Below are positions 1,041 through 64,000 of a stretch of 64,000 bases of DNA, piece after piece. Under the pieces are notes generated by a model, which ran no database searches, had not been told where the DNA came from, and saw nothing but the letters and a program-made list of their open reading frames with translations. How positions within the stretch are numbered: the first letter of the stretch is position 1; each line of letters opens with the position of its first letter. The stretch is from Rhodanobacteraceae bacterium (GTDB lineage: Bacteria; Pseudomonadota; Gammaproteobacteria; Xanthomonadales; Rhodanobacteraceae). The position numbers were made by a program, and so were the translations under genes. The stretch lies in NCBI GenBank assembly GCA_016790075.1, contig JAEUPP010000066.1, positions 1 to 64,000 on the forward strand. The letters run 5' to 3'.

Positions 1041-5712
<4,672 letters not shown>

Positions 5713-43385: not shown

Positions 43386-44093
43386 TCAGCCTGCCGGCTC
43401 CCGTTGCTGCAGGCGCGTGGCCCGTTGCTCGGGCGTCATGCGCAGGAACTCCTGCCGCAGCGCGGCGCGCCCAGCCGGCGGGGTCGCCAGCAGCAACTGG
43501 CGTAGCGCCTTGCGCTGCCGCGGCTCCAGTGAATCAATCATCAGACGCATGGGCTCGCGCTCGGCCTCCGGCAGCGACTGCAGCCAGCGTTCACGCGCGA
43601 GGGCGTGGCGCTCGCTGTTCGCTCCCTGCAGAAACGCGCGGCGCTCGGCCGGGCTCATGCGCTGGAATTCCTCGCGCAGGCGCGCGCGCTCCTCCGGCGG
43701 CAGATGGCGGAAACGCTCCAGGCCACGGCGCACGCGCGCCTGCTGCTCCGGCGGCATGGCACGAAACAGACGGAAGCGCTCGCGCAGTACCTGACGTTCC
43801 GCAGGAGTCAGCGCCTGCCAGCGGCGAAAGCGATCCTGCATTCGCGCACGCTGCTCTGGCGGCATCACAGCCCAGCGCGCGGCCGCGCGACGCAGGCCGG
43901 CCTGACGCTCCGGTGTCATTCCATCCCATTGCGCCGCAAACGGTTGCAACTGTTCGCGTTCGGTCGCACTGAGGCTGGCATAAGGAATTGCTGCCGATGG
44001 CGGCTCAGCCGGCGGCTGCGCCGCCAGATTCCAGGCAAGCCCGGTCAACAGCAGGAACACCACAGTGCGCAGGCTGGCAGCATCACCGCGCAT
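43386..44093 (-). CDS. DUF3106 family exported protein with tandem helical repeats
   Basis: 235 residues from the ATG at 44093, which has GGAGG at the right distance; an ATG six bases upstream sits on top of that site. The signal segment is RTVVFLLLTGLAWNLAAQ. The mature part consists of repeats of about 20 residues built on L/M-x-PEQRARxxxRxxRW (for example MPPEQRARMQDRFRRWQ, LTPAERQVLRERFRLF, LPPEERARLREEFQ). It is probably a helical periplasmic protein similar in style to chaperone or stress proteins such as CpxP-like repeats, but this is inference. Last gene of the sigma-factor operon, overlapping the 88-residue gene by 11 bases. Confidence 0.8.
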   Translation of the reverse strand: MRGDAASLRTVVFLLLTGLAWNLAAQPPAEPPSAAIPYASLSATEREQLQPFAAQWDGMTPERQAGLRRAAARWAVMPPEQRARMQDRFRRWQALTPAERQVLRERFRLFRAMPPEQQARVRRGLERFRHLPPEERARLREEFQRMSPAERRAFLQGANSERHALARERWLQSLPEAEREPMRLMIDSLEPRQRKALRQLLLATPPAGRAALRQEFLRMTPEQRATRLQQREPAG

Positions 44094-44349
44094 CGTCATC
44101 CTCCTCCGCAACTTGCCCATCCGAAGCGGGCAAGTCGGCAGGGTCTATCCAGTTGCCCTGCGCATCCTCGAATTCGCTGAGGTAGAGCAACAGCGCGGCG
44201 TCGGTCGAACTGATTGCAGCACCGGGGGCTGCCTCGGATCCATCCGCGGACGGCGGCGGTGCCGGCGGCGGCAGGGCGCCCGCCGTCAGCGATACAGCAC
44301 AAAACAAGACCGCGCTTAGCCATTGTGTTCGCCGTCGGCATCGAGCCAT
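44083..44349 (-). CDS. Small exported acidic protein in the sigma-factor operon
   Basis: 88 residues. The ATG at 44349 has GGAG eight bases upstream and lies inside the 3' end of the DUF3619 gene (34-base overlap). A signal segment (WLSAVLFCAVSLTAGA) precedes a Pro-rich linker and SSTDAALLLYLSEFEDAQGNWIDP, then an acidic tail EEDDDAR. I do not recognise a named family, but a short protein of this kind between a DUF3619 gene and a DUF3106 gene fits a conserved arrangement. It overlaps the DUF3106 gene by 11 bases. Probably periplasmic. Confidence 0.7.
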   Translation of the reverse strand: MARCRRRTQWLSAVLFCAVSLTAGALPPPAPPPSADGSEAAPGAAISSTDAALLLYLSEFEDAQGNWIDPADLPASDGQVAEEDDDAR

Positions 44350-50686: not shown

Positions 50687-52762
50687 CTACGCCGTCGAGC
50701 CGGCGGCGCCACACCGCTGATTCGACTCACCGCCCAGCAATCCGCGCAGCAGCAAGATCAGCGCCGAGAGCGGTTGCACGAAAGCATCACTGCCGTCACA
50801 CCAGATTGCCGCAACCTGCCGCATCAGCGCCGCCGCCCGCACCAACCCTGAGCACTCCAGCGCGTCAGCCTGGGCCGCCAGGCGCGCATAGGCGGAGGCA
50901 GGCTGGTGACGCAGCCCCTGCCGCGCCAAGGAAGTGAGGTTTTCGACTACGGTTTCAAGCAGGCGGACCAAACCGTCGACCTCCGCATCACCGGCCCACA
51001 CTGGCAACGCCTGCGCCGTTACGGTACCGGCCTGCAGAACAACAGCGCGGCGCGCCGTGAGCAGGGCGAGTGGTACCAGCCGCAAGCTACCCGCGTGCAT
51101 TCCGGCCAAGCCGGCCACATAACGCGGTGGGTCAGCGATGTCGGCCAGGGCTGCCGCGAGCACATCCACCGCGCCCGCCGCGGCTGTATCCTGCGCGAGC
51201 ACAAGCTCGATCCAGTCATCATCAGCGCAGCCATCGACGTCGACAGCATCATTGCTGCAGCGCAGGTGCGCGCGCAGGGTTGAAGCCGCCGCGTCCCAGC
51301 CCCAGGCTCCCAGCTCAGCAACCGGCAGTACATGCACATGGCTTATGGCCTGCCGGGGCTGTACGAAATCCGGTACCGCCTCGCCCAGGTACTGCCGGAG
51401 TGCCCCCGCATTGGGCATGCGCAGCGGGGTAGTCAGTCCATCCCAGGAATTCGGGGACAGCGGCAATACGCTGGTCTGGCGAGCGAGTGCGGAAATGTCG
51501 ATGAGCCCGTTAGCCCGCCGTTTCGCACCGCGTGTGACGACCTGAGCCGACGCAAGCTGGCGCAGCGACTGTCCGGCAACACGCCGCTGCAGCAGAGATG
51601 ACCCAGGCTGTCCGCTCTCGCGAGGCCAGCTCCGCTCAAGCACGGTGACGGCAAGCGTATCGGGGTCAGCGAACAGCACACGCGCGCCGTCGGTGCTGTC
51701 GTCACTCCAGCATTGCAGCCCGAGTGAAACCAGTTTGAGATGATCGAGCGCCACTTCGCCACGTATGCCGATACCGAGTATTCGTGCTGCCGGCAATCGC
51801 GGCTTGTCCACCGCCGCGGCCGCTGCTGCGGCCGCAAGCCGCGCGGCGAACTCCGCCAGCACATCCAATAATCGCCGGGGATCGAAGCGACTCGATCGCG
51901 CCGCTTGCGCCAGCAATAGGGTGCGCAGCTCGTCCAGGCCGTCAACTGACCAGTTCCAGCCAAGTTGCACGAAAAGCTCGCGCAGCGCGACGTAGTCCGC
52001 ATCCAGCGGCATCCATTCCTGGCTGCTACCGTCCAGCCAGACTCGCCTCAGGAAACGCCATGCTGCTGCGTGCGCCGCATTCATCGCCGCGTCGAAACCC
52101 GCAGCCACAACGGCAGCGTTGTGCGGCAGTAGCTCGACAACGCTATCGCATTCGCTCTGCGCCTGACGGAACGCCCAGACAGCAATAGCTACATGTTCAC
52201 AATTTCCACCGAGCTCACAATCGCAGCGTGCATGCGCAAGACTGCTGCGTGAAAAGAAGCGCACGCTGCAGAGCGGCAGATGGGCAGTGGGCGTCGGTGC
52301 CGCCGCTCGCCAGGTGGTCAACCGCACGACTGGCCTGCCCGCAGCGAGCCGCCGCGCCTGCGCTAGCGCCGCGGGGGGCAGCACGCTGGCCAGCACCTCG
52401 TCGCCGAATTCTGCCGGGCTCCACCCCTCCCCGACTTCGACTGCCGCTACGCCGCTGCCAAAAGCCGATTCCAGGGGCTGGTTGCGCGCCCATTCCTGAT
52501 AGGCCAACACCAATGTCACGCGGTGCCGGCACAGTCCGGCGGCAGGACAGGTGCAGCGCGCCTCGCGCAGCGACCTGCCAGGTGCGAGGCTGGCCTGCTG
52601 GCCATCGGCGTAAGTCGCCTGCACGGTTGAATCGGCAAGCACCTCGATCTGCGGCCGGCGACCTTCCGCAATGTCCTTCTGTGCGCGCTTGACGAAGCCA
52701 GGATTCGACAATGCCATCAGGGCGTCGGGGCCAAGCTCGACGAGATCCGCACGCAGGCTCAT
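50687..52762 (-). CDS. yehQ: SWIM zinc-finger protein (YehQ-like)
   Basis: 691 residues. Two SWIM-type metal motifs (CxC...CxH): REARCTCPAAGLCRHRVTLVLA near residue 70-85 (shortened CTCPAAGLCRH) and ARCDCELGGNCEHVAIAV around residue 180-195. The remainder is mostly Ala/Leu-rich and likely all folded helices and strands without a domain I can name. It overlaps the VWA gene upstream by four bases (ATGA) and is the last gene of the operon. E. coli YehQ has the same kind of finger and the same place after the VWA gene. SWIM domains bind DNA or proteins in other families. The target is unknown. Confidence 0.82.
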   Translation of the reverse strand: MSLRADLVELGPDALMALSNPGFVKRAQKDIAEGRRPQIEVLADSTVQATYADGQQASLAPGRSLREARCTCPAAGLCRHRVTLVLAYQEWARNQPLESAFGSGVAAVEVGEGWSPAEFGDEVLASVLPPAALAQARRLAAGRPVVRLTTWRAAAPTPTAHLPLCSVRFFSRSSLAHARCDCELGGNCEHVAIAVWAFRQAQSECDSVVELLPHNAAVVAAGFDAAMNAAHAAAWRFLRRVWLDGSSQEWMPLDADYVALRELFVQLGWNWSVDGLDELRTLLLAQAARSSRFDPRRLLDVLAEFAARLAAAAAAAAVDKPRLPAARILGIGIRGEVALDHLKLVSLGLQCWSDDSTDGARVLFADPDTLAVTVLERSWPRESGQPGSSLLQRRVAGQSLRQLASAQVVTRGAKRRANGLIDISALARQTSVLPLSPNSWDGLTTPLRMPNAGALRQYLGEAVPDFVQPRQAISHVHVLPVAELGAWGWDAAASTLRAHLRCSNDAVDVDGCADDDWIELVLAQDTAAAGAVDVLAAALADIADPPRYVAGLAGMHAGSLRLVPLALLTARRAVVLQAGTVTAQALPVWAGDAEVDGLVRLLETVVENLTSLARQGLRHQPASAYARLAAQADALECSGLVRAAALMRQVAAIWCDGSDAFVQPLSALILLLRGLLGGESNQRCGAAGSTA

Positions 52763-53883
52763 CCCCGCACCTGCTCGGCGATCCAGCCGGCCAGCTCGCC
52801 CGGCGTCATCGCGCCTATCTGTGCACCGACCTTGACCAGGCGCGCGGCGGTTTCGCGGTCATAGCTTGGCTGCGCTTGCGCGTCGAGTGCCGCCAGCCCC
52901 AGTACGCGGCAACCCGACTGGACCAGGGCCTGCGCGCGCCGCACCAGCTCACCGGCGTCGCCGCCCTCGTAGAAATCGCTGACCAGCACAATCAGGGTCC
53001 GTGCCGGATTCGCGACACAGCTTTGGGCATACGCCAGCGCTTGCGCGATATCGGTGCCGCCACCGAGTTGTACCTTCATCAGCAATTCGACCGGATCGGA
53101 CACATCCTCGGTGAGGTCAACGATGGACGTGTCAAATGCCACCAGCCGCGTGTGCATGCCGGGCAGGTTCCACAGGCAGGCGGCCATCACGGCGGAATGA
53201 ATCACCGAGTCGACCATGGACCCGCTTTGATCGATCAGCAATATCAGATCCCAGCGTTGCACCTGCCGGCGTGAGCGGCTGACGAAATACAGCCGGTCGA
53301 AAAACAGCCGTCGCCGCCGGCTATCCCAGCGTGCGAGATTGCTGCGCACGGTACGCGCGAAGTCAAAATTCCGTGCCATCTTCAGCGCCGAACGGCGGCG
53401 GCGGTCGCGCGGTCCAGCGAAAGCTTGCCGCACCTCATTCGCGAGTTTTTCCAGGAGCTGGCGCACGACCTCCGCAACCAGGCGCCGCGCCGCGGCGAGC
53501 ACCGCGGGGTTCATCAGGTGCTTGGTCTGCAGCACCGCACGCAACAGGCTCGGCGACGGCACGATACGTTCCAGCACGTCGAGGTTGGTCACGACTTCGG
53601 TAATGCCGTAACGCTCTACCGCGTCCCGCTCCAACCGCTCGATGACTTCCTGCGGAAACAGCTGGTGCACCGCGTTGATCCAGTCCGGCACCGTCAGCTG
53701 CGAGGCTTCGAGGCCGCCGCTGCGTTCACCGCGTAGCGCCCGTTCGGGATCGCGCCCATACAACCAGTCCAGCGCAGCATCCGCGGCAAGCGCCGCACCA
53801 TCCAGGCTGCCGAGTGCGTTCTGCGAGGCCTCGCCCAGCAGCAGGCGCCAGCGCTGCAGCGCGTCGGGAATCGCGAAACTCAT
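52759..53883 (-). CDS. yehP: VWA (CoxE-like) domain protein (YehP-like)
   Basis: 374 residues. The C-terminal half is a von Willebrand A domain with the MIDAS motif LILLIDQSGSMVDSVIH (DxSxS), then LVAFDTSIVDLTEDV and VLVSDFYEGGDAGELV. The N-terminal half is helical with a basic segment (GPRDRRRRSALKMARNF). VWA proteins of this type pair with MoxR AAA ATPases and together remodel protein complexes or insert metal. It overlaps the DUF5682 gene by four bases on one side and the SWIM gene by four on the other, so synthesis is tightly coupled. The E. coli counterpart is YehP (378 residues). Confidence 0.87.
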   Translation of the reverse strand: MSFAIPDALQRWRLLLGEASQNALGSLDGAALAADAALDWLYGRDPERALRGERSGGLEASQLTVPDWINAVHQLFPQEVIERLERDAVERYGITEVVTNLDVLERIVPSPSLLRAVLQTKHLMNPAVLAAARRLVAEVVRQLLEKLANEVRQAFAGPRDRRRRSALKMARNFDFARTVRSNLARWDSRRRRLFFDRLYFVSRSRRQVQRWDLILLIDQSGSMVDSVIHSAVMAACLWNLPGMHTRLVAFDTSIVDLTEDVSDPVELLMKVQLGGGTDIAQALAYAQSCVANPARTLIVLVSDFYEGGDAGELVRRAQALVQSGCRVLGLAALDAQAQPSYDRETAARLVKVGAQIGAMTPGELAGWIAEQVRG

Positions 53884-56255
53884 GCCGTTTCCTCCTGCGC
53901 AGCCGGCAATACGCCCCAGCGCTGCAGCTCGGCCCAGAGTTCGCGCTCGCGGCGGGCCGCCAGCGCGATCAACTGCGGCGGCACGTCCTGCGGCAGCGCT
54001 GCAGTCAAGCGGCTCTGCGGCAAGTGCACAGCCTCATGCAGCCGCAATACGGCGCGGGCGAGCTGCCCGCGTTCGCGCGCCGGCAGCCAGGCGAGCGCAG
54101 CGCGCAGGGCCGGCAGTGCGTGTATGAAGTCATCGTCGTCGAGCGCGACGACAAGTGCGTCGACACCGCGCACGAAGGCGGGGTCCTCTGCAATCTGCTC
54201 GCGTGCCAGCGCGAGCAGCCCGGACAAGGCATCCCCTAACGCGTCGGCTGCCAGCGTACCCAGCAGCGCCATGGCTGCCGAGGTGTCAACCGCCGCGGAT
54301 GTGGCGCCAGCAAGCTGAGGCAAGCTGATCAGCGCACCTAGCGCGGCGCCGCGGCTCAATGCCGCAGCCGTCACGTCCTGCGCCTTGCGCGCCAGCACCG
54401 CGAGTGCACGCGCCACTTCGATTTCCAGTCCGGCATGTCCTTCCTGCTGATCAGCAACATGCCCGCGCAGCAGGTCCCGCAACGCTGCCACGGCACGAAG
54501 ATGCGGGTAGACCTCTGCTGCCGCAATCGCTGCGGTTGGCTCAAACAACCACAGTGCGCGGTCACACGCAGCGCCAATCACGACCGCCAGCAAGGGTGCG
54601 CCGGCTACGGCAACCGCTGCGCCATGCCGGTACAACGGATACAGCACGGCCAGAGCCTGGCCGACATCTTCAAAGCGCGGCGCCGCGGCGATCGCGCTGC
54701 GCAGATCGGCGAGCAGCGCATCGCTGACCGCGGCCAGCCCAGCCAGCGCTGCCTCATTAAGGCCCTGCGCCAATGCAGTGATATCGCTGCGCGCGTCGCG
54801 CAGCTTTGCTTCAAGCATTGCGCGCGCCGCATCAGCCAGGGTCGCCCCGTAGGCACCGGCCTCGATCAGTGCCGCCGCCTGTTCGACAGGACGGGCCAGG
54901 CGCCAGCGTTCGCGGCGCTCGCCGGCCAGGGCCAGCGTCGGGCCCTGCAGGCGTTCTATGCCCGGAATGCCCAGCAGACGCAGCCTGTGCAGTACGCGGC
55001 TTTCACACCGTCCCTGCGCTCCCAGCAGATCAATGTCGCGCTCGCCATCCAGCGTGATCCCGGCAGCAGCCAGTTCGTGTTCGACCGAGGCAACCAGCGG
55101 AGGCTGTGGTGTGTCAGGCGCCAGCCGGCCGCGCTGATCACCGGCAAGCACGTCCATGACTTCCACCAGCAACGGTGCAGTACCCGCGCGAATCGTGCCG
55201 CGATAGGTCCAGGGCAGCGCGGCATCCTGAGCTTCCTTCAGCAGGCAGGCAGCCACTGCGTCTAGCCAGTCCGCACGCAGCGGCTCGGCATGCCCGCGCA
55301 GCGCAGCGAGCCCCCGTGCATGGGTATGTACCGCGATCAGATCGGCCGTCGACGCGGCCAGACCACGCCGGCGCAGACGCCCGGCTATCTCGCGTAGCAG
55401 ACGCAGGCCCGCCGCATCGCAGCCCTCTTCCCATAGCCACTGGTAATACAGCGGCGAGGACATGCCCGAGGCATAGCCCAGAAACGCGTCGAGCCGGCGA
55501 AAGCTATAGGGGACGAGGAACGAGCCGTGGCGCGATGCCAGGCTGTCACCCGGCGGCGCGGGCGATATGGGTTCGGCCTCACCAACACGCTCCTCACGCC
55601 AGAGCCGCGCCAGCGCAGGGGCGTGGTAGCCGCCACACACCACCAGCACCTCGCCATCGTCGCGTGCCATAGCCCAGGCGATCCATTGCGCCATCTGCGT
55701 TTCGCGCGCCGCGTTGCCGGCCGAGCCAGGGTCGTCGCCACGCAACTGCTCAAAATGTGTCCGCAGATGCTCAGCGAGTGCATCGGTCTCGCCATCCTGC
55801 TCGAACAGGTGATCCCAAAGCGCATCGCGCCCATCGATCGCCAGTCGCTCGGCAAGCGCCGCCTCGTAGGCTTGCGCCCGCGCCTCATGAACCGCATCAG
55901 GCGCATCGGCGTAGCGGTTGGGCAAATCCGTCATCGCATCGTGCCAGGCTGGCAAATCGATGAAACGCACGATGGCCCCCTGCACCCGCCCCAGTACCAG
56001 CGCCTGCCATTCCGGCGAATGCTCCGCAAACGGCGTCCAAGAACCGCGCTGCACCCCGTCGCCCGACAAGTAGCTGTAGATGGCGACAGGCAATTGATGG
56101 CCCAGAGACAGCTCGTCCAGCCGCGGATTGAAATCGGCCGGCCCTTCAATGAGCACATAGCGCGGCTGCAGCGCGCGGACCCGTGCCGCGACGAGCCGCG
56201 CACAGGCCGGGCTGTGATGGCGCACGCCGACGATACAAGGCGCGCGCCGACTCAT
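53880..56255 (-). CDS. yehM: DUF5682 family protein (YehM-like)
   Basis: 791 residues. It opens CIVGVRHHSPACARLVAARV and LIEGPADFNPRLDEL, the signature of DUF5682. A VVCGGYHAPALARLW motif follows at about residue 210. The order HH, then EGP, then GGYHA recalls the ChaN/EreA/TraB-like hydrolase fold, though this is an inference. The C-terminal two thirds are helical, with no TM segments. It overlaps the ATPase gene by four bases and the VWA gene by four. E. coli YehM (about 760 residues) occupies the same place. Probably the client-recognition or enzymatic component of the module. Confidence 0.82.
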   Translation of the reverse strand: MSRRAPCIVGVRHHSPACARLVAARVRALQPRYVLIEGPADFNPRLDELSLGHQLPVAIYSYLSGDGVQRGSWTPFAEHSPEWQALVLGRVQGAIVRFIDLPAWHDAMTDLPNRYADAPDAVHEARAQAYEAALAERLAIDGRDALWDHLFEQDGETDALAEHLRTHFEQLRGDDPGSAGNAARETQMAQWIAWAMARDDGEVLVVCGGYHAPALARLWREERVGEAEPISPAPPGDSLASRHGSFLVPYSFRRLDAFLGYASGMSSPLYYQWLWEEGCDAAGLRLLREIAGRLRRRGLAASTADLIAVHTHARGLAALRGHAEPLRADWLDAVAACLLKEAQDAALPWTYRGTIRAGTAPLLVEVMDVLAGDQRGRLAPDTPQPPLVASVEHELAAAGITLDGERDIDLLGAQGRCESRVLHRLRLLGIPGIERLQGPTLALAGERRERWRLARPVEQAAALIEAGAYGATLADAARAMLEAKLRDARSDITALAQGLNEAALAGLAAVSDALLADLRSAIAAAPRFEDVGQALAVLYPLYRHGAAVAVAGAPLLAVVIGAACDRALWLFEPTAAIAAAEVYPHLRAVAALRDLLRGHVADQQEGHAGLEIEVARALAVLARKAQDVTAAALSRGAALGALISLPQLAGATSAAVDTSAAMALLGTLAADALGDALSGLLALAREQIAEDPAFVRGVDALVVALDDDDFIHALPALRAALAWLPARERGQLARAVLRLHEAVHLPQSRLTAALPQDVPPQLIALAARRERELWAELQRWGVLPAAQEETA

Positions 56256-57364
56256 GGCAGGCGATGCCGGGCCTCGAAATACGCCCGCCAGTGCGCACCG
56301 GCCTTCTTCGCGACTTTCTGTTCGAAGTAGCGGCGCAACTTCGCACGGTCGTCGGCATCATCCTTGACCACGGTGCCGGCGATGCAGTCGACGAGATCGG
56401 CCGGACTGCCGCCCCGCTGTTCGAGAAACCAGGCACGCACACCGACCGCATGCGCGACGTTGACCGCCTCGGCTGTCGACATCACCGCATTGAGCCGGTC
56501 CATGCCGCCTTCGCGACGACCGCCCTCGCCGCTGGCGCGCAGCTCGCGAAACGTGGTCACCAGCAGTTCGAGCACGGGCTCGGGCACCGCCCTGGGTATG
56601 CCGCTGCGCGCCAGCAGCTCGGCCGAAGCCTGCTGCACCAGGGCCAATTCGCGCTCGTAGTCGAGAATAGGAAACACCGTCTCGAAATCGAAGCGGCGCT
56701 TGAGTGCCGCCGACATTTCGTTGACGCCACGATCGCGCGTGTTGGCGGTCGCGATGATATTGAACCCTTCGCGCGCATAGAGCATGGCGTGCTCTGACGC
56801 AAGTTCCGGCACGGCCATCACGCGATCGGACAGCATGCCGAGCAGGCAGTCCTGCACTTCCAGCGGCGCGCGCGTGATTTCCTCGAAACGCACGATACGG
56901 CCATCGCGCATGCCCTGGTATAGCGGCGCCGGTACCAGTGCACGCGGGCTAGGCCCCTCGTTGATGAGGAGCGCATAGTTCCACGAGTATTTGATCTGGT
57001 CTTCGGTAATCGAGGCGCCACCCTGTATCGTCAGCGTCGACATGCCGCTGACCGCGGTCGCCAACAGTTCCGACAGCAGCGACTTGGCCGTACCCGGTTC
57101 GCCCACGAGCATCAGGCCGCGGCCAGTCGCCAGCGTCACCAGCATGCGTTCGATCGCCGCCACCGGCGCGACGATCTTGCGCGAAACATCCAGCGCTGCA
57201 TCGCCGAGCACAAAGGCGCGCGCCGCCTTGAGGCTCAGCGCCCAGCCCGGCGGCCGCGGGTCCTGATCGGCAGCGCCCAGACGCTGGAGCTCATCGGCGT
57301 AGAGGATTTCCGCAGGTGGTCGCTGCAGCTTGGAGGCGGCGGGTTCAGGTTGTTTTTTGGCCAT
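56252..57364 (-). CDS. yehL: MoxR-family AAA+ ATPase (YehL-like)
   Basis: 370 residues. Walker A GEPGTAKSLL, Walker B region RFEEITRAPLEVQD (with EE in place of DE), sensor 1 IIATANTRDRGVNEMSAALKRRFDF, and the C-terminal lid with a sensor-2 region around GMDRLNAVMST. The N-terminal 60 residues form a specific extension. MoxR ATPases work with VWA proteins as chaperone-like machines that assemble or activate partner complexes. It overlaps the DUF5682 gene by four bases and starts 28 bases after the DUF4132 gene. It matches E. coli YehL in size, domain and position. Confidence 0.92.
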   Translation of the reverse strand: MAKKQPEPAASKLQRPPAEILYADELQRLGAADQDPRPPGWALSLKAARAFVLGDAALDVSRKIVAPVAAIERMLVTLATGRGLMLVGEPGTAKSLLSELLATAVSGMSTLTIQGGASITEDQIKYSWNYALLINEGPSPRALVPAPLYQGMRDGRIVRFEEITRAPLEVQDCLLGMLSDRVMAVPELASEHAMLYAREGFNIIATANTRDRGVNEMSAALKRRFDFETVFPILDYERELALVQQASAELLARSGIPRAVPEPVLELLVTTFRELRASGEGGRREGGMDRLNAVMSTAEAVNVAHAVGVRAWFLEQRGGSPADLVDCIAGTVVKDDADDRAKLRRYFEQKVAKKAGAHWRAYFEARHRLP

Positions 57365-57392
57365 GGCGGAAGATGGGGAAATTGAGTTGTAG

Positions 57393-60300
57393 TCAGGCGC
57401 AGAGCGCTTCCATATCGCGAATCAGCTCGCTCGCGGCAATGGCATCGAGCGCCGAGAATGGCTTGGTGTCCTGCATGCCGCCCCAGCTCGTCGGCACGCC
57501 GACCTGCAGCTCCTGCAGGTTCTGTTCGGGATATTCGCCGACAAGGCCGACGATGATGCCGGGCTCGAAACTGAGTTCGATCACGGTATGACCTGAAAGC
57601 GGCTTGGTGAAATACCAGATGCCGCCGCCGTCCTGGGCTACGCCGCGACGCCAGCCTTTGTTGACCAGGCCGAGGATGCGGCCGGTAGGAACCACCCTGC
57701 CCTTCCAGCGCAGCAGTTCCGTCGCCGCACGCTCCGCCTCGGTCAGCGCAAAACTCTCGCGTCCCAGCTGGGCGAACGGCTGCAGCAATTCGTAGTCGGC
57801 CAGCACCTGAGCGAAAGCGGCCGCTGTTTCCGCCGGCAATTCCAGCGCATGGGGCAGGCCAAGCCGTATGCGCTCGCCCTGAGGTAGATCAATACTCGCG
57901 TCGTCGGCATCGCTGTAGCTGCCGTCTTCGGCAACACGGAAGCAGTGCAGCAGCCGCCCACCCTGCGCCGCCTCGACGTCGTCGACCTCGTAGACACCCC
58001 AGACCAGCCGTTGCACCAGATGCCGCACCAGCGGATGGCCGGCCAGGAAACGCTCGAAAACGTCGCGCTCCCAACGACGGCGCGAACACATCGCGACCTC
58101 AAGCCGCAGAACCTGCTGCGCGGCGATCGTACGTGCATCCTTCTTGAGCTGCTTGAAGCGCTCGACCGCGGCCGAGGACAGCGCGGCATCGTCGGTCTTT
58201 TTCGGCTTGGGCAAATCGGCCAGACGCGCACCATCGCTGTCGCGGACATAGGGCTTCAAGGCCTCATCAAAACCGACACGGAACTGGCGGGGACCAAAAT
58301 CGAGCAGCAGCGTGCCGCTTTCGTCGAGGCCGAGATCGGGTGCAAGGCGATCTTCCAGCTCCTCGGCACTCAGGCCGCGCGCCACGGCAACCGCATCGAT
58401 CTTCTCCCGCGCCTTGTCCTGCAGTCCCTTGAACTTCACCTTCTGCGCAATGCCGTTGAGCAGCATCAGCGCCACGTCGCTGCCTATCATCGCCAGCACA
58501 TCGAGGCCGGCCACTGCACGCGCATGCGCCCCTTCCCCGGGCCAGTTGCGGATCAGCGGCGTCAGCCGCCGCGCCGTGTCGTCGTTGCCGAACCAGCCAA
58601 GCGCCGTCATGCCCCAGCCTTCCTTGGATGGCGCCGCCGCAGCCAGCCATGCGCTGAAGAGATCCCAGGCGAAATCCGCGATCGACTCGGCCGTACAGAC
58701 TTCCCTGACCTGCGCGACGCCGGGGTACAACGCCTCGTTCGCCGGGAACATCAGCATCTCGCCCAGATGATCCAGCGCGGCATCCGGCAACGCCTTGCCA
58801 TTGCTGCGCAGCCGCGGGCGCCGCCAGCCGCGCGGCGCCCAGAACGCGGGCAGGCTACCCCGCCGGCTGGGGAAGCGATCCAGCGGATCTTCCGCAAGCA
58901 TGAGGCGCACGGCGTCCACCACGTCGCTGCGGCCGTAGCGCGCCGCCACCTGGTGGACCAGTTCTTCCTGCCCGTTTGCCGCCAGGAAACGCAGCGCTGC
59001 ACCGGCGCAATCGCGGGCTTCACCCGCCTTGCCGAGAGCGGGCGCAATCAGCGCCGCTGCCGCATATTCGGAGTAGCGCAGCAACCAGTCACGGCCGAAA
59101 CGGCGCAAGGTCTTGAGCTTCGCTAAGGCGCGCGCGGCGATCGGCGCCAGCTCGGCGTCAGCCACGGCCAGCGCCAGATCGGCGAACTCCACGGGATTGC
59201 GCCGGATCGCCCGTAGCGCACCAGGCCAGGCCGCCAGACCGAAGCGTGCCAGCATGTAGCTCACGTTGGCATCCGCACTGCCCTCACCAGCCAGGCGGTT
59301 CCAGACAGCCAGCGCAAAGTCCTGCGGCAACTGTGCGATCAGCCCGCCGTTGATGACGCAGTAGGTGTAGCGCCGGTTCGCATTCACCTGTTTCCAGGCC
59401 GCGTGCAGGGCGTCGGTATCACGCTGGCGCAGGGCGACCAGGGCTTTTTCCAGCAGGGTCCGCTCAAGCGCGGCATCAATGACCGAATAGCCGGCATCAA
59501 AACCCAGCTCGCGGGCAAACTGCTGCATGTCCTTGGCGCAGCGTGTGAAGCGCTGCTGTTCCCACTGCGACAGGACGCTCAGCCTGTCGCGTTCATCCTG
59601 GTCCCAGAACAGCTGCGTGGGCAGATCCAGCGGCGCAAGTCCCGCGACGCTGGCCGTCGCCTTGCGCGGTTTCAGCCACGGTGGATCGGCCAGCACCGGC
59701 GGCAGCTCGTCCACCGCAGCGGCTTCGGCTGGTCCAGCCAGAAGAACCAGTTGCCGCTCGATCACCGCCCAGGCGGCGCTGTTGAGCCATGGCCGCACCG
59801 CGTCCGCCGCCCCCGCGTTGGCCTGTAGCAGCCCCCCCAACAATGGCACCAGCGCCGCACTGTCGCGGCCCGCGCCGGCAATCAGCCGCGCCAGCGCAGC
59901 AATAGCCGGCAACGGCCAGCGCTGTGCCGCCTGATTCAGCCGCAGCAGACAGGATTTGCCTGTCGATGCCACGTCCGCCAGCGCCGTGATCGCCTCGGGT
60001 ACACCGAAATACGTCAGCAGCCCCCCCGGAAGGTCCTCGGCCGCCGACTGCAGCAGCAGGGGTAGCGTATCGAGGCGACGTTCGCGCAACACGGTCGCCA
60101 GCATCGACGGGTTGTGCAGGAACCACTGATAGTCGACCTTGCCGGCGAACACCGCCTGCAAGGCTGCGGGCGCCGTGGCCGTCAGTTGCAGCCAGTGCAG
60201 CGCGGCCGGCGCCGCCGCGCCGCCGACCCGCAGCGCAACCTCGTTGGAGATTTCCGGCGCATCGGGGAACAGCAGCGCGACGACAACCTGACGGGCGGGG

Positions 60301-61298
60301 TGCAGCGAGCCGATCTGCGCCTTGACCAGCGCGACACATTCCTGCCAGATCGCTTCGTCCGCGTGTGACAAGCGGCGCCGGAACACCAGCTCGTCCGCGC
60401 TGAGCACCGAGTACCAGATCGACGAAAAGGGAGCGGAGACGTTACGACTTACCGCAACCTGACGCGAATGCCCGCGCGGTTGCCCATGCCATTGGGCGGT
60501 CGATGCGACCTGGTAGCACTGTGCCTGCAGCAGCAACCCGAGCGCAGCCACGAGGCCGTGCTGGTCTATCAGATATTCCGCGACGCAGGCGGGATCATTC
60601 GCCTGATGCGTACGGTCAGACAGCAATGCACAGGACAGGGCCAACAGCAGCACATCGGACTCAACGCTGCCAGCCAGCGTCCGCTGCTCAATTCGCTGCC
60701 AGGTCAGCTCCAGCAGCGGCCACAGCGCGGGATCGGTTCCCGATTGATCGAGCGTGGTTTCCTTGAGCAGGCGTGCGCGCGCCTGCAGCCACCAGGTGCG
60801 CGGATCCACCGTCGGCACCTCGGCCGGAAACCGGCGCGACGGTAACGCAATGACCCCAAGGTTGTACTTGTCCGTGCTGTGCAGGTACTTCCAGGCGGCA
60901 TCGAAATCCAGCGGCTCTGCGGCTAGCCAGGGTGGCTGGCCGGACTCCGCCGGCAGCGGCGCCGGTGGACTTGCACCGGCATCGGCACTGGCATCGCCCG
61001 ACGCAACAGCGGCGGGCGTTGCCGCCGGCGGCGCCAGCTTTTTTTCCAACTTCACTTTTTCACTATTTTCAGCGACCGCTGCGGCCGCCCCGGCAGTGGT
61101 TTCCACATAGCCCTTGGCGGTCTTCTCGGTAACGAGCTTGTCCAGCGCCAACCTGGCCTTCACCGCATCGGCAAAACTCTTGGTCTGACTCTGCCCCTGG
61201 GTGCCTATGCGGCCCCAGCGGATCTGCAGCTCCACCCCTTCCTGCACGATTTCCCAGAACTTGTTGGAAGCCCCCTCGGAAAACTCGAAGCGACGCAT
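57393..61298 (-). CDS. WGR-DUF4132 protein (MolR/YehI-like), first copy
   Basis: 1301 residues from the ATG at 61298 (MRRFEFSEG, AGGGACGG just upstream); the longer frame to 61424 is spurious. Residues 1-66 are a WGR domain (KFWEIVQEGVELQIRWGRIG, WGR at 28-30), otherwise known from PARPs and MolR proteins. A low-complexity Ala/Pro linker (about 67-110) precedes a very long helical repeat region (about 110-900, ARM/HEAT-like in style). The C-terminal DUF4132 domain (about 1040-1301) includes RRRWERDVFERFLAGHP and WRRGVAQDGGGIWYFTKP. It lies 28 bases upstream of the ATPase gene. Its C-terminus is almost the same as that of the next gene. Confidence 0.87.
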   Translation of the reverse strand: MRRFEFSEGASNKFWEIVQEGVELQIRWGRIGTQGQSQTKSFADAVKARLALDKLVTEKTAKGYVETTAGAAAAVAENSEKVKLEKKLAPPAATPAAVASGDASADAGASPPAPLPAESGQPPWLAAEPLDFDAAWKYLHSTDKYNLGVIALPSRRFPAEVPTVDPRTWWLQARARLLKETTLDQSGTDPALWPLLELTWQRIEQRTLAGSVESDVLLLALSCALLSDRTHQANDPACVAEYLIDQHGLVAALGLLLQAQCYQVASTAQWHGQPRGHSRQVAVSRNVSAPFSSIWYSVLSADELVFRRRLSHADEAIWQECVALVKAQIGSLHPARQVVVALLFPDAPEISNEVALRVGGAAAPAALHWLQLTATAPAALQAVFAGKVDYQWFLHNPSMLATVLRERRLDTLPLLLQSAAEDLPGGLLTYFGVPEAITALADVASTGKSCLLRLNQAAQRWPLPAIAALARLIAGAGRDSAALVPLLGGLLQANAGAADAVRPWLNSAAWAVIERQLVLLAGPAEAAAVDELPPVLADPPWLKPRKATASVAGLAPLDLPTQLFWDQDERDRLSVLSQWEQQRFTRCAKDMQQFARELGFDAGYSVIDAALERTLLEKALVALRQRDTDALHAAWKQVNANRRYTYCVINGGLIAQLPQDFALAVWNRLAGEGSADANVSYMLARFGLAAWPGALRAIRRNPVEFADLALAVADAELAPIAARALAKLKTLRRFGRDWLLRYSEYAAAALIAPALGKAGEARDCAGAALRFLAANGQEELVHQVAARYGRSDVVDAVRLMLAEDPLDRFPSRRGSLPAFWAPRGWRRPRLRSNGKALPDAALDHLGEMLMFPANEALYPGVAQVREVCTAESIADFAWDLFSAWLAAAAPSKEGWGMTALGWFGNDDTARRLTPLIRNWPGEGAHARAVAGLDVLAMIGSDVALMLLNGIAQKVKFKGLQDKAREKIDAVAVARGLSAEELEDRLAPDLGLDESGTLLLDFGPRQFRVGFDEALKPYVRDSDGARLADLPKPKKTDDAALSSAAVERFKQLKKDARTIAAQQVLRLEVAMCSRRRWERDVFERFLAGHPLVRHLVQRLVWGVYEVDDVEAAQGGRLLHCFRVAEDGSYSDADDASIDLPQGERIRLGLPHALELPAETAAAFAQVLADYELLQPFAQLGRESFALTEAERAATELLRWKGRVVPTGRILGLVNKGWRRGVAQDGGGIWYFTKPLSGHTVIELSFEPGIIVGLVGEYPEQNLQELQVGVPTSWGGMQDTKPFSALDAIAASELIRDMEALCA

Positions 61299-61532
61299 AC
61301 CGTCCCTGTCCGGCCATTGGCGAAGCGCCAACGCTATACAGAGTCTGCTACAAGATCCAGCCCACAGGCTTCGTGACCTGCCCGACAAAATAGGCATTGG
61401 CGGTGGAAAAATGCCCGCCGCCAATTACGTGCTCACCGACATGCGGGATTTCTGCGAATGGGTGTCCAGCTTGGGCGCAGCAGGATTGACTTGCCTAGCG
61501 GCCATGACAGGAGGACTTCGGAGATCCGGTGA
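61299..61532. other. Spacer between the two DUF4132 genes
   Basis: 234 bases without a coding frame. It probably holds a promoter or processing site for the downstream operon, but no clear -35/-10 pair or terminator hairpin is seen. Confidence 0.4.
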
Positions 61533-64000
61533 TCAGGCGCAGAGCGCTTCCAGATCACGGATCATTTCGCTGGCCGCGATAGCGTCGAGCGTAGAGAACG
61601 GCTCTGCTTGCTGCACGCCGCCCCAATCGCCGGGCACACCAACCCGCAGGTCCAGCAGCACCTGCTCGGGGTGTTCGCCGACCAGCCCGACTATGATGCC
61701 GGGCTCGAAACTGAGTTCGATAACGGTGCGGCGTGAAAGCGGCTTGGTGAAATACCAGATGCTGCCGCCGTCCTGCGCCGCGCCTCGCCGCCAGCCTTTG
61801 TTGACTAGGCCAAGGATGCGGCCGGTAGGAACCACCTTGTTCTTCCAGCGCACGAGTACGGTCGCCGCGCGCTCTGCCTCGGTCAGGGTAAAGCTCTCAC
61901 GGCCTAGCTGCGCAAACGGCTGCAGCAATTCGTAATCGGCCAGTACCTGCGCGAACGCGGCAGCCGTTTCCGCCGGCAGTTCCAGCGCATGCGGCAGGCC
62001 AAGCCGGATGTGATCACCTTGCGGCAATTCGATCGTGGCGTCGCCGGTGTCGCAATAGCTGCCATCCTCAGCTACGCGGAAACACCGCGACAGCCGGCCG
62101 CCCTGTGCGGCGGCGTCCTCGTCGACTTCGTAGACTCCCCAGACCAGGCGCTGCACCAAATGCCGCAGCAGGGGATGTCCGGCAAGAAACCGCTCAAACA
62201 CCTCGCACTCCCAGCGCCGGCGCGCACACATGGCAATTTCGAGCCGCAGTATCTGCTGCGCGGCAATCGTGCGTGCGTCCTTGCCAAGCCGCTTGAAGTT
62301 TGCAACAGCGGCAGCGGCCAACGCCGCATCATCGGCCTTCGTTGGCTTGGGCAGATCCGCACGGCGTGCGCCGTCGCCGTCGCGTACACAAGGCTTGAGC
62401 GTTTCGTCAAACCCGACACGGAACTGGCGCGGGCCGAAATCGAGCAACAAGGTGCCGCTCTCATCCAGCCCCAGATCGGGTGCAAGCCTATCCTCAAGCT
62501 CCTCAGTACTGAGGTCGCGCGCCGTTGCGATCGCTTCGATCTTCTCGCGCGCCTTGTCCTGCAAACCTTTGAACTTCACCTTTTGCGCAATGCCGTTGAG
62601 CAGCATCAGCGCGACATCGCTACCGATCGCGGCCAGTACATCGAGTCCCGCCACAGCGCGCGCATGTGCGCCCTCGCCCGGCCAGTTACGTATCAGCGGC
62701 GTGAGGCGGCGCGCGGTGTCATCGTTGCCCAGCCAGCCCAGGGCAGCCATGCCCCAGCTATCCTTGGGCGAGCCGGCGGCGACTAGCCAGGCATTGAACA
62801 GATCCCAGGAAAAATCGGCAAGGGATTCGGGTGTACAGGCGTCCTTGACCTGGGCGATACCGGCATAGCGCTCTTCATTGGCCGGGAACATCAGCATCGC
62901 GCCAAGATGATCGAGTGCCGCATCCGCCAGTGCCTTGCCACTGCTGCGCAGACGCGGACGCCGCCAGCCACGCGGCGCCCAAAATGCCGGCAAGCTGCCA
63001 CGCCGGTCCGGAAAACGATCAAGTGGATCTTCGGCGAGCATCAGGCACACCGCAGCTGTCACCTCGTCACGGCCATACCGCGCAGCGACCGCGTGAATCA
63101 GTGATGCATGCCCATTCGCCGCGAGGAAACGCAGAGCGGCACCCGCACACTCACGTGCTTCGCCCGTTTTGCCAAGCGCTGGCGCAACCAGTGCCGCGGC
63201 CGCGTGCCCGGGACAACGCAGCAGCCAGTCACGGCCAAAGCCACGTAAAGTCTTGAGCTTCGCAAACGCCCTGGCCGCGGTTGGCGCGAGCTCAACATCG
63301 GCAATGGATGCGACAAGTTCCGCAAACTCAATGGGATTGCGTCGAATCACGCGCTGCGCCCCCGGCCACGCGGCAAGACCGAAGCGGGCGAGCATGTAAG
63401 CAACATCCTCGGTGCGGCCTTCATCCTCACCGGCGAAGCGATTCCAAACGGCAAGTGCGAAGTCCTGCGGCAACTGCGCGATCAGGCCCCCCTTGACGAC
63501 CAGGCGCCTCCAGGGCCGATCCGCCTTTGCACGCAGCCAGACAGCGTACAGAGCCTCGGCATCCTGCTGGAGTAACGCAACCTCACGCAGTTCGAGCAAC
63601 TGCTGCTCGCCAACAGGATCAGTAGCATCCAGGCCGATATCCGAACCGAAGGCCTTGGCAAACTTGCGCATGTCATCGCGACATTGCTCAAAGTAGCGCT
63701 GCGTCGCCGACGGCAGCGTGCTCCAGCGCTCGCGCTCACCCTCACGCCAGAGCAGCTGTGTCGGCAATTCCAGCGGAACCAAGTCCGCGATATGCGCCTT
63801 CGTCTTGCGCGGCTTCAGCCAGGGCGGATCAGCGAGTACCGCCGGCAGATCCTCGGTAACAGCCACATCAGCCGGCCCAGCCAGCAGCGCGGAGCGGCGC
63901 TCGATGACGGCATTCGTTGCCGCATCGAGCCAAGGTCGGAGCAAGGCCTGCGCTGCCGTGTTGGACAGCAGCAGCCCATCCAGCAACGGCGCCAGTAGGG
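61533..64000 (-). CDS. DUF4132 protein, second tandem copy, 5' part outside the window
   Basis: At least 820 residues; the frame stays open to the window edge (LLAPLLDGLLLSNT), so the N-terminus, including any WGR domain, is not visible. The alignable part runs from about LKPRKTKAHIADLVPLELPTQLLW to the C-terminus ALDAIAASEMIRDLEALCA. The last about 600 residues are nearly identical to the downstream copy (for example ERFLAGHPLLRHLVQRLVWG, VPTGRILGLVNKGWRRG). The middle (around LYAVWLRAKADRPWRRLVVKGGL against LHAAWKQVNANRRYTYCVINGGL) is diverged. It belongs to the same minus-strand operon and is the most upstream gene seen. Confidence 0.85.
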   Translation of the reverse strand, partial: LLAPLLDGLLLSNTAAQALLRPWLDAATNAVIERRSALLAGPADVAVTEDLPAVLADPPWLKPRKTKAHIADLVPLELPTQLLWREGERERWSTLPSATQRYFEQCRDDMRKFAKAFGSDIGLDATDPVGEQQLLELREVALLQQDAEALYAVWLRAKADRPWRRLVVKGGLIAQLPQDFALAVWNRFAGEDEGRTEDVAYMLARFGLAAWPGAQRVIRRNPIEFAELVASIADVELAPTAARAFAKLKTLRGFGRDWLLRCPGHAAAALVAPALGKTGEARECAGAALRFLAANGHASLIHAVAARYGRDEVTAAVCLMLAEDPLDRFPDRRGSLPAFWAPRGWRRPRLRSSGKALADAALDHLGAMLMFPANEERYAGIAQVKDACTPESLADFSWDLFNAWLVAAGSPKDSWGMAALGWLGNDDTARRLTPLIRNWPGEGAHARAVAGLDVLAAIGSDVALMLLNGIAQKVKFKGLQDKAREKIEAIATARDLSTEELEDRLAPDLGLDESGTLLLDFGPRQFRVGFDETLKPCVRDGDGARRADLPKPTKADDAALAAAAVANFKRLGKDARTIAAQQILRLEIAMCARRRWECEVFERFLAGHPLLRHLVQRLVWGVYEVDEDAAAQGGRLSRCFRVAEDGSYCDTGDATIELPQGDHIRLGLPHALELPAETAAAFAQVLADYELLQPFAQLGRESFTLTEAERAATVLVRWKNKVVPTGRILGLVNKGWRRGAAQDGGSIWYFTKPLSRRTVIELSFEPGIIVGLVGEHPEQVLLDLRVGVPGDWGGVQQAEPFSTLDAIAASEMIRDLEALCA

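What the first reader, a model, noticed from the sequence alone, without database searches (positions are those of the whole stretch)
50687..64000. MoxR-VWA-SWIM-DUF5682 system with tandem WGR/DUF4132 proteins, a poorly understood ternary module
Seen: a tightly overlapped minus-strand operon (three ATGA overlaps) of MoxR ATPase, DUF5682, VWA and double-SWIM proteins, headed by two large DUF4132 proteins. Established: the order and protein sizes match the E. coli yehI/yehL-yehM-yehP-yehQ (MolR-related) cluster, of unknown function, and MoxR ATPases act with VWA proteins as assembly machines. Inference: WGR and SWIM domains occur in DNA-damage or nucleic-acid proteins, so the module may sense nucleic-acid or stress state and remodel a target, perhaps in defence or regulated cell response.
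Basis: partly seen in the sequence, partly recalled or inferred. Interest (0 to 1): 0.85.

Follow-up and report, generated by a model that had tools for sequence, protein, structure and literature searches.

The report
YehL-type MoxR-VWA gene cluster
This is a copy of a little-understood bacterial gene cluster, also present in E. coli, that appears to build an ATP-driven protein-remodelling machine and whose mystery protein now looks like a hydrolase-type enzyme, which makes its function testable.

Summary
Window 50687-64000 (minus strand, on to 65453 in its contig) holds two WGR/DUF4132 genes, MoxR, DUF5682, VWA and double-SWIM genes, with three 4-base overlaps, in the order of E. coli yehI-yehL-yehM-yehP-yehQ. 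It is an ordinary member of the named YehL branch of MoxR ATPases, of unknown function.

Added here: (1) a co-inherited unit: in 41 DUF5682 loci, MoxR was found in 40 and VWA in 39, the misses lying at contig ends. (2) Two forms: SWIM_A with DUF4132 (22 loci) or SWIM_B with DUF5691 (16); none has both; three are undetermined. MoxR, VWA and DUF5682 trees split the same way. (3) The DUF5682 N-terminus is a remote relative of TraB/TIKI proteins with invariant His13, Glu37 and His211; structure models were too poor to test this. (4) In this genus the cassette usually lies between ung and rpoH, neighbours in most relatives; the DUF4132 pair arose in place, since a scrap of ung lies between them.

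Neighbours gave no sign of a defence island. Best guess: a MoxR-VWA machine controlling a hydrolase-like partner in a damage or stress response; the chemistry and trigger are inferred.

The parts
61533..64000 (-). Upstream WGR/DUF4132 protein (part in window; complete gene 61533-65453 in the contig, 1306 aa)
61304..61425 (-). 122-base scrap, 80% identical to the 3' end of ung and the leader of the upstream DUF4132 gene: trace of a tandem duplication
   Evidence: blastn (E 6e-28)
57393..61298 (-). Downstream WGR/DUF4132 protein, 1301 aa; profile of the family matches HEAT-like alphaRep chains in its middle
   Evidence: (71% identical to the upstream copy)
56252..57364 (-). MoxR AAA+ ATPase (YehL type); Walker A at residue 88, Walker B at 159
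   Evidence: nearest solved chain midasin
53880..56255 (-). DUF5682 protein (YehM type)
55401..56255 (-). N-terminal 285 residues of DUF5682, remote relative of TraB/TIKI; His13, Glu37, Arg184, Met188, His211
   Evidence: model of residues 1-330 of low confidence
52759..53883 (-). VWA protein (VWA_CoxE, YehP type); MIDAS DQSGS at residue 218, Thr277, Asp303
50687..52762 (-). Double-SWIM zinc-finger protein (YehQ type)

Best explanation
The locus encodes one co-inherited machine of the YehL type. MoxR is expected to form an ATP-driven ring that works through the VWA protein, whose MIDAS site grips a target (inferred from NorQ-NorD and other pairs; active residues intact here). Its closest target or partner is the DUF5682 protein, made from the same overlapping message; its N-terminal domain is a remote TraB/TIKI relative and probably a hydrolase or peptidase (inferred). 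The SWIM protein and the large WGR/HEAT-like/DUF4132 proteins would be the input side: adaptors that recognise nucleic acid or a damaged complex and bring the machine to it (inferred). In a second branch DUF5691 takes the place of DUF4132. The likely role is a damage or stress response in which MoxR-VWA switches the hydrolase-like protein on or presents substrate to it.
For: Shown: the gene set and overlaps; MoxR in 40 and VWA in 39 of 41 DUF5682 loci; two exclusive forms with the same single A/B split in trees of 39 MoxR, 37 VWA and 39 DUF5682, 0 of 500 shuffles as low; pairwise-distance correlations 0.89-0.96, 0 of 2000 permutations reaching them; DUF4132 and DUF5682 in the same genomes (9 both, 2 DUF4132 only, 5 DUF5682 only, 382 neither, p 1.7e-13); one open frame of 1960 aa with SWIM then WGR then DUF4132 in L053. 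DUF5682-N against TraB: hhalign Prob 80.8, score 45.1, best of 150 column shuffles 22.7. Invariant His13, Glu37, His211. Damage induction of DUF4132 and WGR proteins in D. radiodurans (PMC8533742). Damaged-base repair gene ung lies just upstream here, which is position, not proof.
Against: No biochemical evidence for hydrolase activity. The two structure models are poor (mean pLDDT 53.5 and 48.2) and Foldseek found nothing at E 0.001 or better. Against ChaN the match is weaker (Prob 25.4; 3.2). The first Glu of the published 2His/2Glu set has no counterpart seen at the equivalent place. Some TIKI-fold proteins are not enzymes (PMT, same paper). Co-located genes correlate in distance whatever their function. 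No LexA box without mismatch in the 27-kb E. coli region; one-mismatch boxes are no more than chance. In E. coli the cluster is almost universal and yehH is a pseudogene in K-12. DUF4132 genes also occur alone: 5 of 19.
Confidence: 0.4

Rival explanations
1. A maturation machine: MoxR-VWA opens a target enzyme for cofactor or metal insertion, as NorQ-NorD does, and DUF5682 is a metal- or haem-binding carrier (ChaN-like), not a hydrolase.
For: Published MoxR-VWA pairs with known roles insert metals or activate enzymes (PMC9976466, PMC12657314, PMC13036017: abstracts and passages). ChaN has the same fold (PMC6254334 passages) and DUF5682-N matches it above all of 100 shuffles. The gene name molR recalls molybdate.
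Against: No metalloenzyme is a constant neighbour in the 130 neighbour proteins scanned (one search shows only the 25 commonest families). The match to TraB is stronger than to ChaN. The D. radiodurans authors saw no change in moeA or moeB.
Confidence: 0.2
2. An anti-phage or conflict system, akin to the MoxR-vWA ternary systems.
For: Patchy spread (14 of 398 phylum genomes), lateral movement (tree; a mobilizable Iodobacter plasmid carries it beside a type I restriction system), two exchangeable partner sets.
Against: PADLOC at E 1e-10: 8 families matched among 130 neighbours, 34 among 130 control genes. No convincing PADLOC match for the proteins themselves. Near-universal in E. coli. VWA has no C-terminal effector domain.
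Confidence: 0.15
3. A nucleic-acid quality-control system, in particular RNA repair, in which DUF5682 and MoxR-VWA clear or remodel damaged ribonucleoprotein.
For: One type B locus (L043) lies beside an RlaP gene, with RtcR- and RtcB-like genes near; one type A locus (L066) has an RtcB-like gene (RtcR and RtcB names are recalled).
Against: Only 2 of 41 loci.
Confidence: 0.1

Closest known systems
E. coli yehI-yehL-yehM-yehP-yehQ (YehL subfamily of MoxR ATPases)
   Same: Same order of DUF4132, MoxR, DUF5682, VWA and SWIM genes, similar sizes; MoxR sits next to the E. coli and Iodobacter copies in the tree. YehL is a named subfamily (PMC3893208, PMC11432383 passages).
   Different: Window has two intact WGR/DUF4132 genes; K-12 has a yehH pseudogene, a separate WGR protein yehF, yehK in between, and YehI without a Pfam WGR match.
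SWIM-DUF5691-MoxR-DUF5682-VWA operons (form B; Deinococcus and Rhizobium plasmids)
   Same: Same MoxR, DUF5682, VWA core and a SWIM protein.
   Different: DUF5691 in place of WGR/DUF4132, a different SWIM family, usually at the 5' end; separate branch in all three trees.
MoxR-vWA ternary conflict systems (PMC7159879)
   Same: MoxR plus vWA plus a third component.
   Different: Third component is DUF5682, not VMAP, iSTAND or another listed one; no effector domain after the VWA domain; weak match to the bpMoxR profile, under cut-off.
TraB/TIKI/ChaN/erythromycin-esterase superfamily
   Same: DUF5682 N-terminus: profile match to TraB with His, Glu, R-x-x-x-M and GxxH stretches aligned.
   Different: Long extra C-terminal part; only two His and one Glu of the published 2His/2Glu set; no structural confirmation.
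NorQ-NorD, CbbQ-CbbO, RavA-ViaA, midasin
   Same: MoxR-type ring with VWA/MIDAS partner; nearest solved chains to the MoxR are midasin.
   Different: None has DUF5682, SWIM or WGR/DUF4132 partners as far as the passages read say.

Membership tests
YehL-type MoxR cluster | MoxR, DUF5682, VWA and SWIM genes together, in the order of E. coli yehL-yehM-yehP-yehQ | tested here: met
YehL-type MoxR cluster | MoxR phylogenetically with E. coli YehL | tested here: met
   Starred branch with L004 and L074 in a 39-row quick tree made of cluster MoxRs only; no other MoxR subfamily was included
MoxR AAA+ ATPase | Walker A, Walker B and sensor residues | tested here: met
   Invariant in 39 of 39 at the positions counted, save the hydrophobic residue before Walker B EE
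VWA co-factor of MoxR | MIDAS DxSxS-T-D | tested here: met
   37 of 37, Thr 36 of 37
MoxR-vWA ternary conflict system | VMAP, iSTAND or another described third component, effector domains on the vWA protein | tested here: not met
   Pfam shows DUF5682 and a VWA that ends near the C-terminus; bpMoxR under cut-off
TraB/TIKI superfamily (DUF5682 N-terminus) | Profile similarity along the domain | tested here: met
   Prob 80.8-87.9 by setting; best shuffle 22.7 against 45.1; ung, reversed and four cluster families at 0.2 or less
TraB/TIKI superfamily (DUF5682 N-terminus) | TIKI fold | tested here: inconclusive
   Model pLDDT 53.5; no Foldseek match at E 0.001
TraB/TIKI superfamily (DUF5682 N-terminus) | 2His/2Glu active-site set of the published enzymes | tested here: inconclusive
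   Two His and one Glu invariant; the second Glu not seen at the equivalent place
Anti-phage defence system | Enrichment beside other defence genes | tested here: not met
   8 PADLOC families among 130 neighbours, 34 among 130 controls at E 1e-10; a small sample
Anti-phage defence system | Protection against phage | not testable with these tools
   needs bench work

The most novel reading that the evidence does not exclude
DUF5682 proteins are TIKI/TraB-fold peptidases or esterases under the control of a MoxR-VWA ATPase, and the SWIM plus WGR/HEAT-like/DUF4132 (or DUF5691) proteins aim this enzyme at damaged nucleic-acid complexes: a damage-triggered, ATP-gated proteolytic switch found from E. 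coli to Deinococcus.
Probability: 0.22. Interest if true: 0.82.

Novelty: new member of a known kind. Interest (0 to 1): 0.5.

Why it matters
E. coli carries this cluster in almost every sequenced genome, yet its function is unknown. Reading DUF5682 as a remote TraB/TIKI relative gives three residues to test, and the two exchangeable partner sets show which parts are core (MoxR, DUF5682, VWA, a SWIM protein) and which are swapped. If the reading is right, MoxR-VWA machines would control hydrolases as well as insert cofactors.

Tried and rejected
Structure: two AlphaFold2 jobs with 3-row alignments (only sequences allowed by the tool) gave weak models and Foldseek found no match at E 0.001 or better; I draw nothing from them beyond strand positions. 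Phage link: IMG/VR scans with two DUF5682 alignments confirmed no relative; phage records gave one unannotated 14-kb faecal scaffold; yet PHROGs has families that match the SWIM, VWA, DUF5682 and DUF4132 proteins strongly, so some (pro)virus record must carry them; not traced. SOS link: no exact CTGTN8ACAG in the 27-kb E. coli stretch and only one in L005, inside the MoxR gene; with one mismatch 13 in 27 kb, two of them upstream of cluster genes, one 25 bases before yehF, which is what chance gives. PDB profile of DUF5682 hit only ATP-synthase b coiled coils in its C-terminal part, taken as coiled-coil similarity. DUF5691 and DUF4132 are not shown to be related (Prob 1.4). An early SWIM profile drifted into DUF4132 proteins and was rebuilt. 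RNA repair was followed to 41 loci and found in 2.

Rows dropped: I fetched all DUF5682 places except the own genome, repeats, fragments (L027) and places under the cut-off (L024, L041, L178, L179). In the control set four long genes of 134 were left out to stay under the residue limit. L069 was typed A by hand from a short DUF4132 end seen. The first printing of domain positions is unreliable where a protein has several domains; one search corrects L053. L184 has DUF5691 but no SWIM_B found although its contig runs on.

Full report
What is there. The window's last 13.3 kb hold, on the minus strand, two WGR/DUF4132 genes, MoxR, DUF5682, VWA and double-SWIM genes. MoxR/DUF5682, DUF5682/VWA and VWA/SWIM overlap by four bases, each with an ATG start. 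The upstream DUF4132 gene runs on to contig position 65453. The order is that of E. coli yehI-yehL-yehM-yehP-yehQ. The names ung, ftsE, ftsX, rpoH and priA below come from my reading of the sequences and from the agreement of their neighbours; PriA, FtsX and Sigma70 domains were also seen among the neighbours scanned by Pfam.

How it got here. In the window's contig the order is ftsE, ftsX, a two-receiver response regulator, ung, the cluster, rpoH. Among 30 ung loci of the family, the three of the window's genus have DUF4132 right after ung; of the other 27, 20 have rpoH within the 1.5 kb held, 17 of them within 0.42 kb; 7 have not. So the cassette entered between ung and rpoH. Of the genus's eight genomes with DUF5682, six have it at this place as far as their contigs show (window, L048, L049, L051 on both sides where held; L054 and L058 on the rpoH side only), while G050 and G091 have it elsewhere. 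The 234 bases between the two DUF4132 genes hold a 122-base scrap, 80% identical to the end of ung and the leader of the upstream DUF4132 gene. The pair therefore arose by a tandem duplication after arrival; the proteins are 71% identical. It need not be the same pair as yehH/yehI.

One unit. DUF5682 was found in 17 of 117 genomes of the family (16 over cut-off), 14 of 398 of the phylum, 14 of 369 of the class (12 over cut-off) and 3 of 289 of another class. I fetched 41 loci. MoxR was found in 40 and VWA in 39; L186, L069 and L187 end or begin at contig edges. In a few loci (such as L052, L055, L071, L185) VWA is separated from DUF5682 by other cluster genes. In the 398 genomes 11 carry DUF4132 and 9 of these also carry DUF5682 (Fisher p 1.7e-13, not corrected for relatedness). 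Of 19 DUF4132 genes there, 12 lie within about 10 kb of DUF5682 on one contig, 2 lie on another contig of such a genome (G282, whose DUF5682 is at a contig end) and 5 stand alone, one of them in the window's own genome (L007).

Two forms. Form A has DUF4132 and SWIM_A; form B has DUF5691 and SWIM_B. Of 41 loci, 22 are A (one, L069, typed by a fragment; one, L058, by SWIM_A alone at a contig end), 16 are B and 3 are undetermined; none has both partners. Trees of MoxR (39 rows), VWA (37) and DUF5682 (39), made by a quick method, each separate A from B by one change, 0 of 500 shuffles as low. Distances between genes correlate at 0.89-0.96; genes that sit together would do so in any case. The tree is not that of the species: the window's clade joins E. 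coli and an Iodobacter plasmid, other members of its own family lie elsewhere, and G091 has both forms. In L053 one open frame of 1960 aa reads SWIM, then WGR, then DUF4132, which ties these proteins together. DUF5691 shows weak HEAT similarity and the DUF4132 family matches HEAT-like alphaRep chains, but the two are not shown to be homologous.

What DUF5682 may be. In 18 aligned members GxRHH, Glu37, R-E-x-x-M and GxxH are nearly or fully invariant; in 39 rows His13 and Glu37 are in 38 of 38 that reach them and Arg184, Met188, Gly208, His211 in 39 of 39. A profile of the first 285 residues matches a profile of 20 TraB_PrgY_gumN proteins with Prob 87.9 (a run whose options gave a full-length alignment) or 80.8 (local, 34 columns, score 45.1). 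The best of 150 column shuffles scored 22.7, the reversed profile 12.6, ung 13.5; VWA, MoxR, SWIM and DUF4132 gave Prob 0.2 or less. ChaN, a known fold relative of TIKI proteins, gave Prob 25.4 and 32.1 (best of 100 shuffles 21.0), close to what TraB gives with ChaN (29.0, 32.0). Single sequences hardly see it: 1 of 18 members hit the TraB model, at E 0.26. The published TIKI enzyme RRSP needs 2His/2Glu (PMC6254334, abstract and passages); DUF5682 offers two His and one Glu. The low-confidence model puts strands at 7-11, 33-37 and 203-208, which end at these residues. That the match means an enzyme is inference.

How it may work. MoxR-VWA pairs are remodelling machines: NorD's VWA finger enters the NorQ ring and its MIDAS site binds the target (PMC9976466 passages; PMC13036017 abstract). 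The MoxR and VWA residues needed are intact here. I infer that the machine acts on or with DUF5682, and that SWIM and WGR/DUF4132 proteins supply recognition. The damage link rests on D. radiodurans: DRA0166 (DUF4132) and DR2173 (WGR) increase after mitomycin C in wild type, not in an irrE mutant (PMC8533742, passages). The same paper says MolR was described as LexA-controlled; my scans neither show nor exclude it.

Defence. No cluster protein gave a convincing PADLOC match (one hit, WGR, E 0.0028). Of 130 nearest neighbours, 8 PADLOC families matched at E 1e-10, 5 of the member matches being one family; of 130 control genes from the same set of genomes, 34 families (the tool does not give members per protein). 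The gene calls were my own. Against this, the Iodobacter plasmid copy sits beside a type I restriction system and insertion elements, and the module moves between lineages.

Literature. The only papers found with the term DUF4132 were three. No paper listed shows a DUF5682 or DUF5691 count above zero among the 12 displayed of 181. The library holds open-licence papers only, so this does not prove that nothing is in print. YehL is a named MoxR subfamily.

Noticed in passing
L043 422-7468; L066 17846-19126: RNA-repair-like genes beside the cluster: RlaP (PF10127) with RtcR- and RtcB-like genes in L043, and an RtcB-like gene in L066; the RtcR and RtcB names are recalled. 2 of 41 loci.
   Followed up: partly
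L007 12511-16170: A third DUF4132 protein (1219 aa) of the window's genome stands alone on contig C28, without MoxR, DUF5682 or VWA neighbours in the stretch read.
   Followed up: partly
L053 11803-17685: Single open frame of 1960 aa joining SWIM, WGR and DUF4132 parts.
   Followed up: yes
L074 (Iodobacter fluviatilis plasmid pl1): A form A cluster with two DUF4132 genes on a mobilizable plasmid, beside IS elements and a type I restriction-modification locus.
   Followed up: no
L080 (E. coli plasmid NZ_CP103756): The yeh region lies on an IncF plasmid between two IS26 copies, with resistance genes nearby, as annotated.
   Followed up: no
window 50687-64000: PHROG families match the SWIM, VWA, DUF5682 and DUF4132 proteins strongly, although phage and viral-contig searches found almost nothing; the source record was not traced.
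   Followed up: no
window 43386-44120: A 244-aa protein rich in repeated PPEQRARxR / TPAERQ-like units next to an ECF-like sigma factor gene.
   Followed up: no
window 1270-4464: A 1064-aa ORF that looks like a heavy-metal RND efflux pump (recalled resemblance).
   Followed up: no
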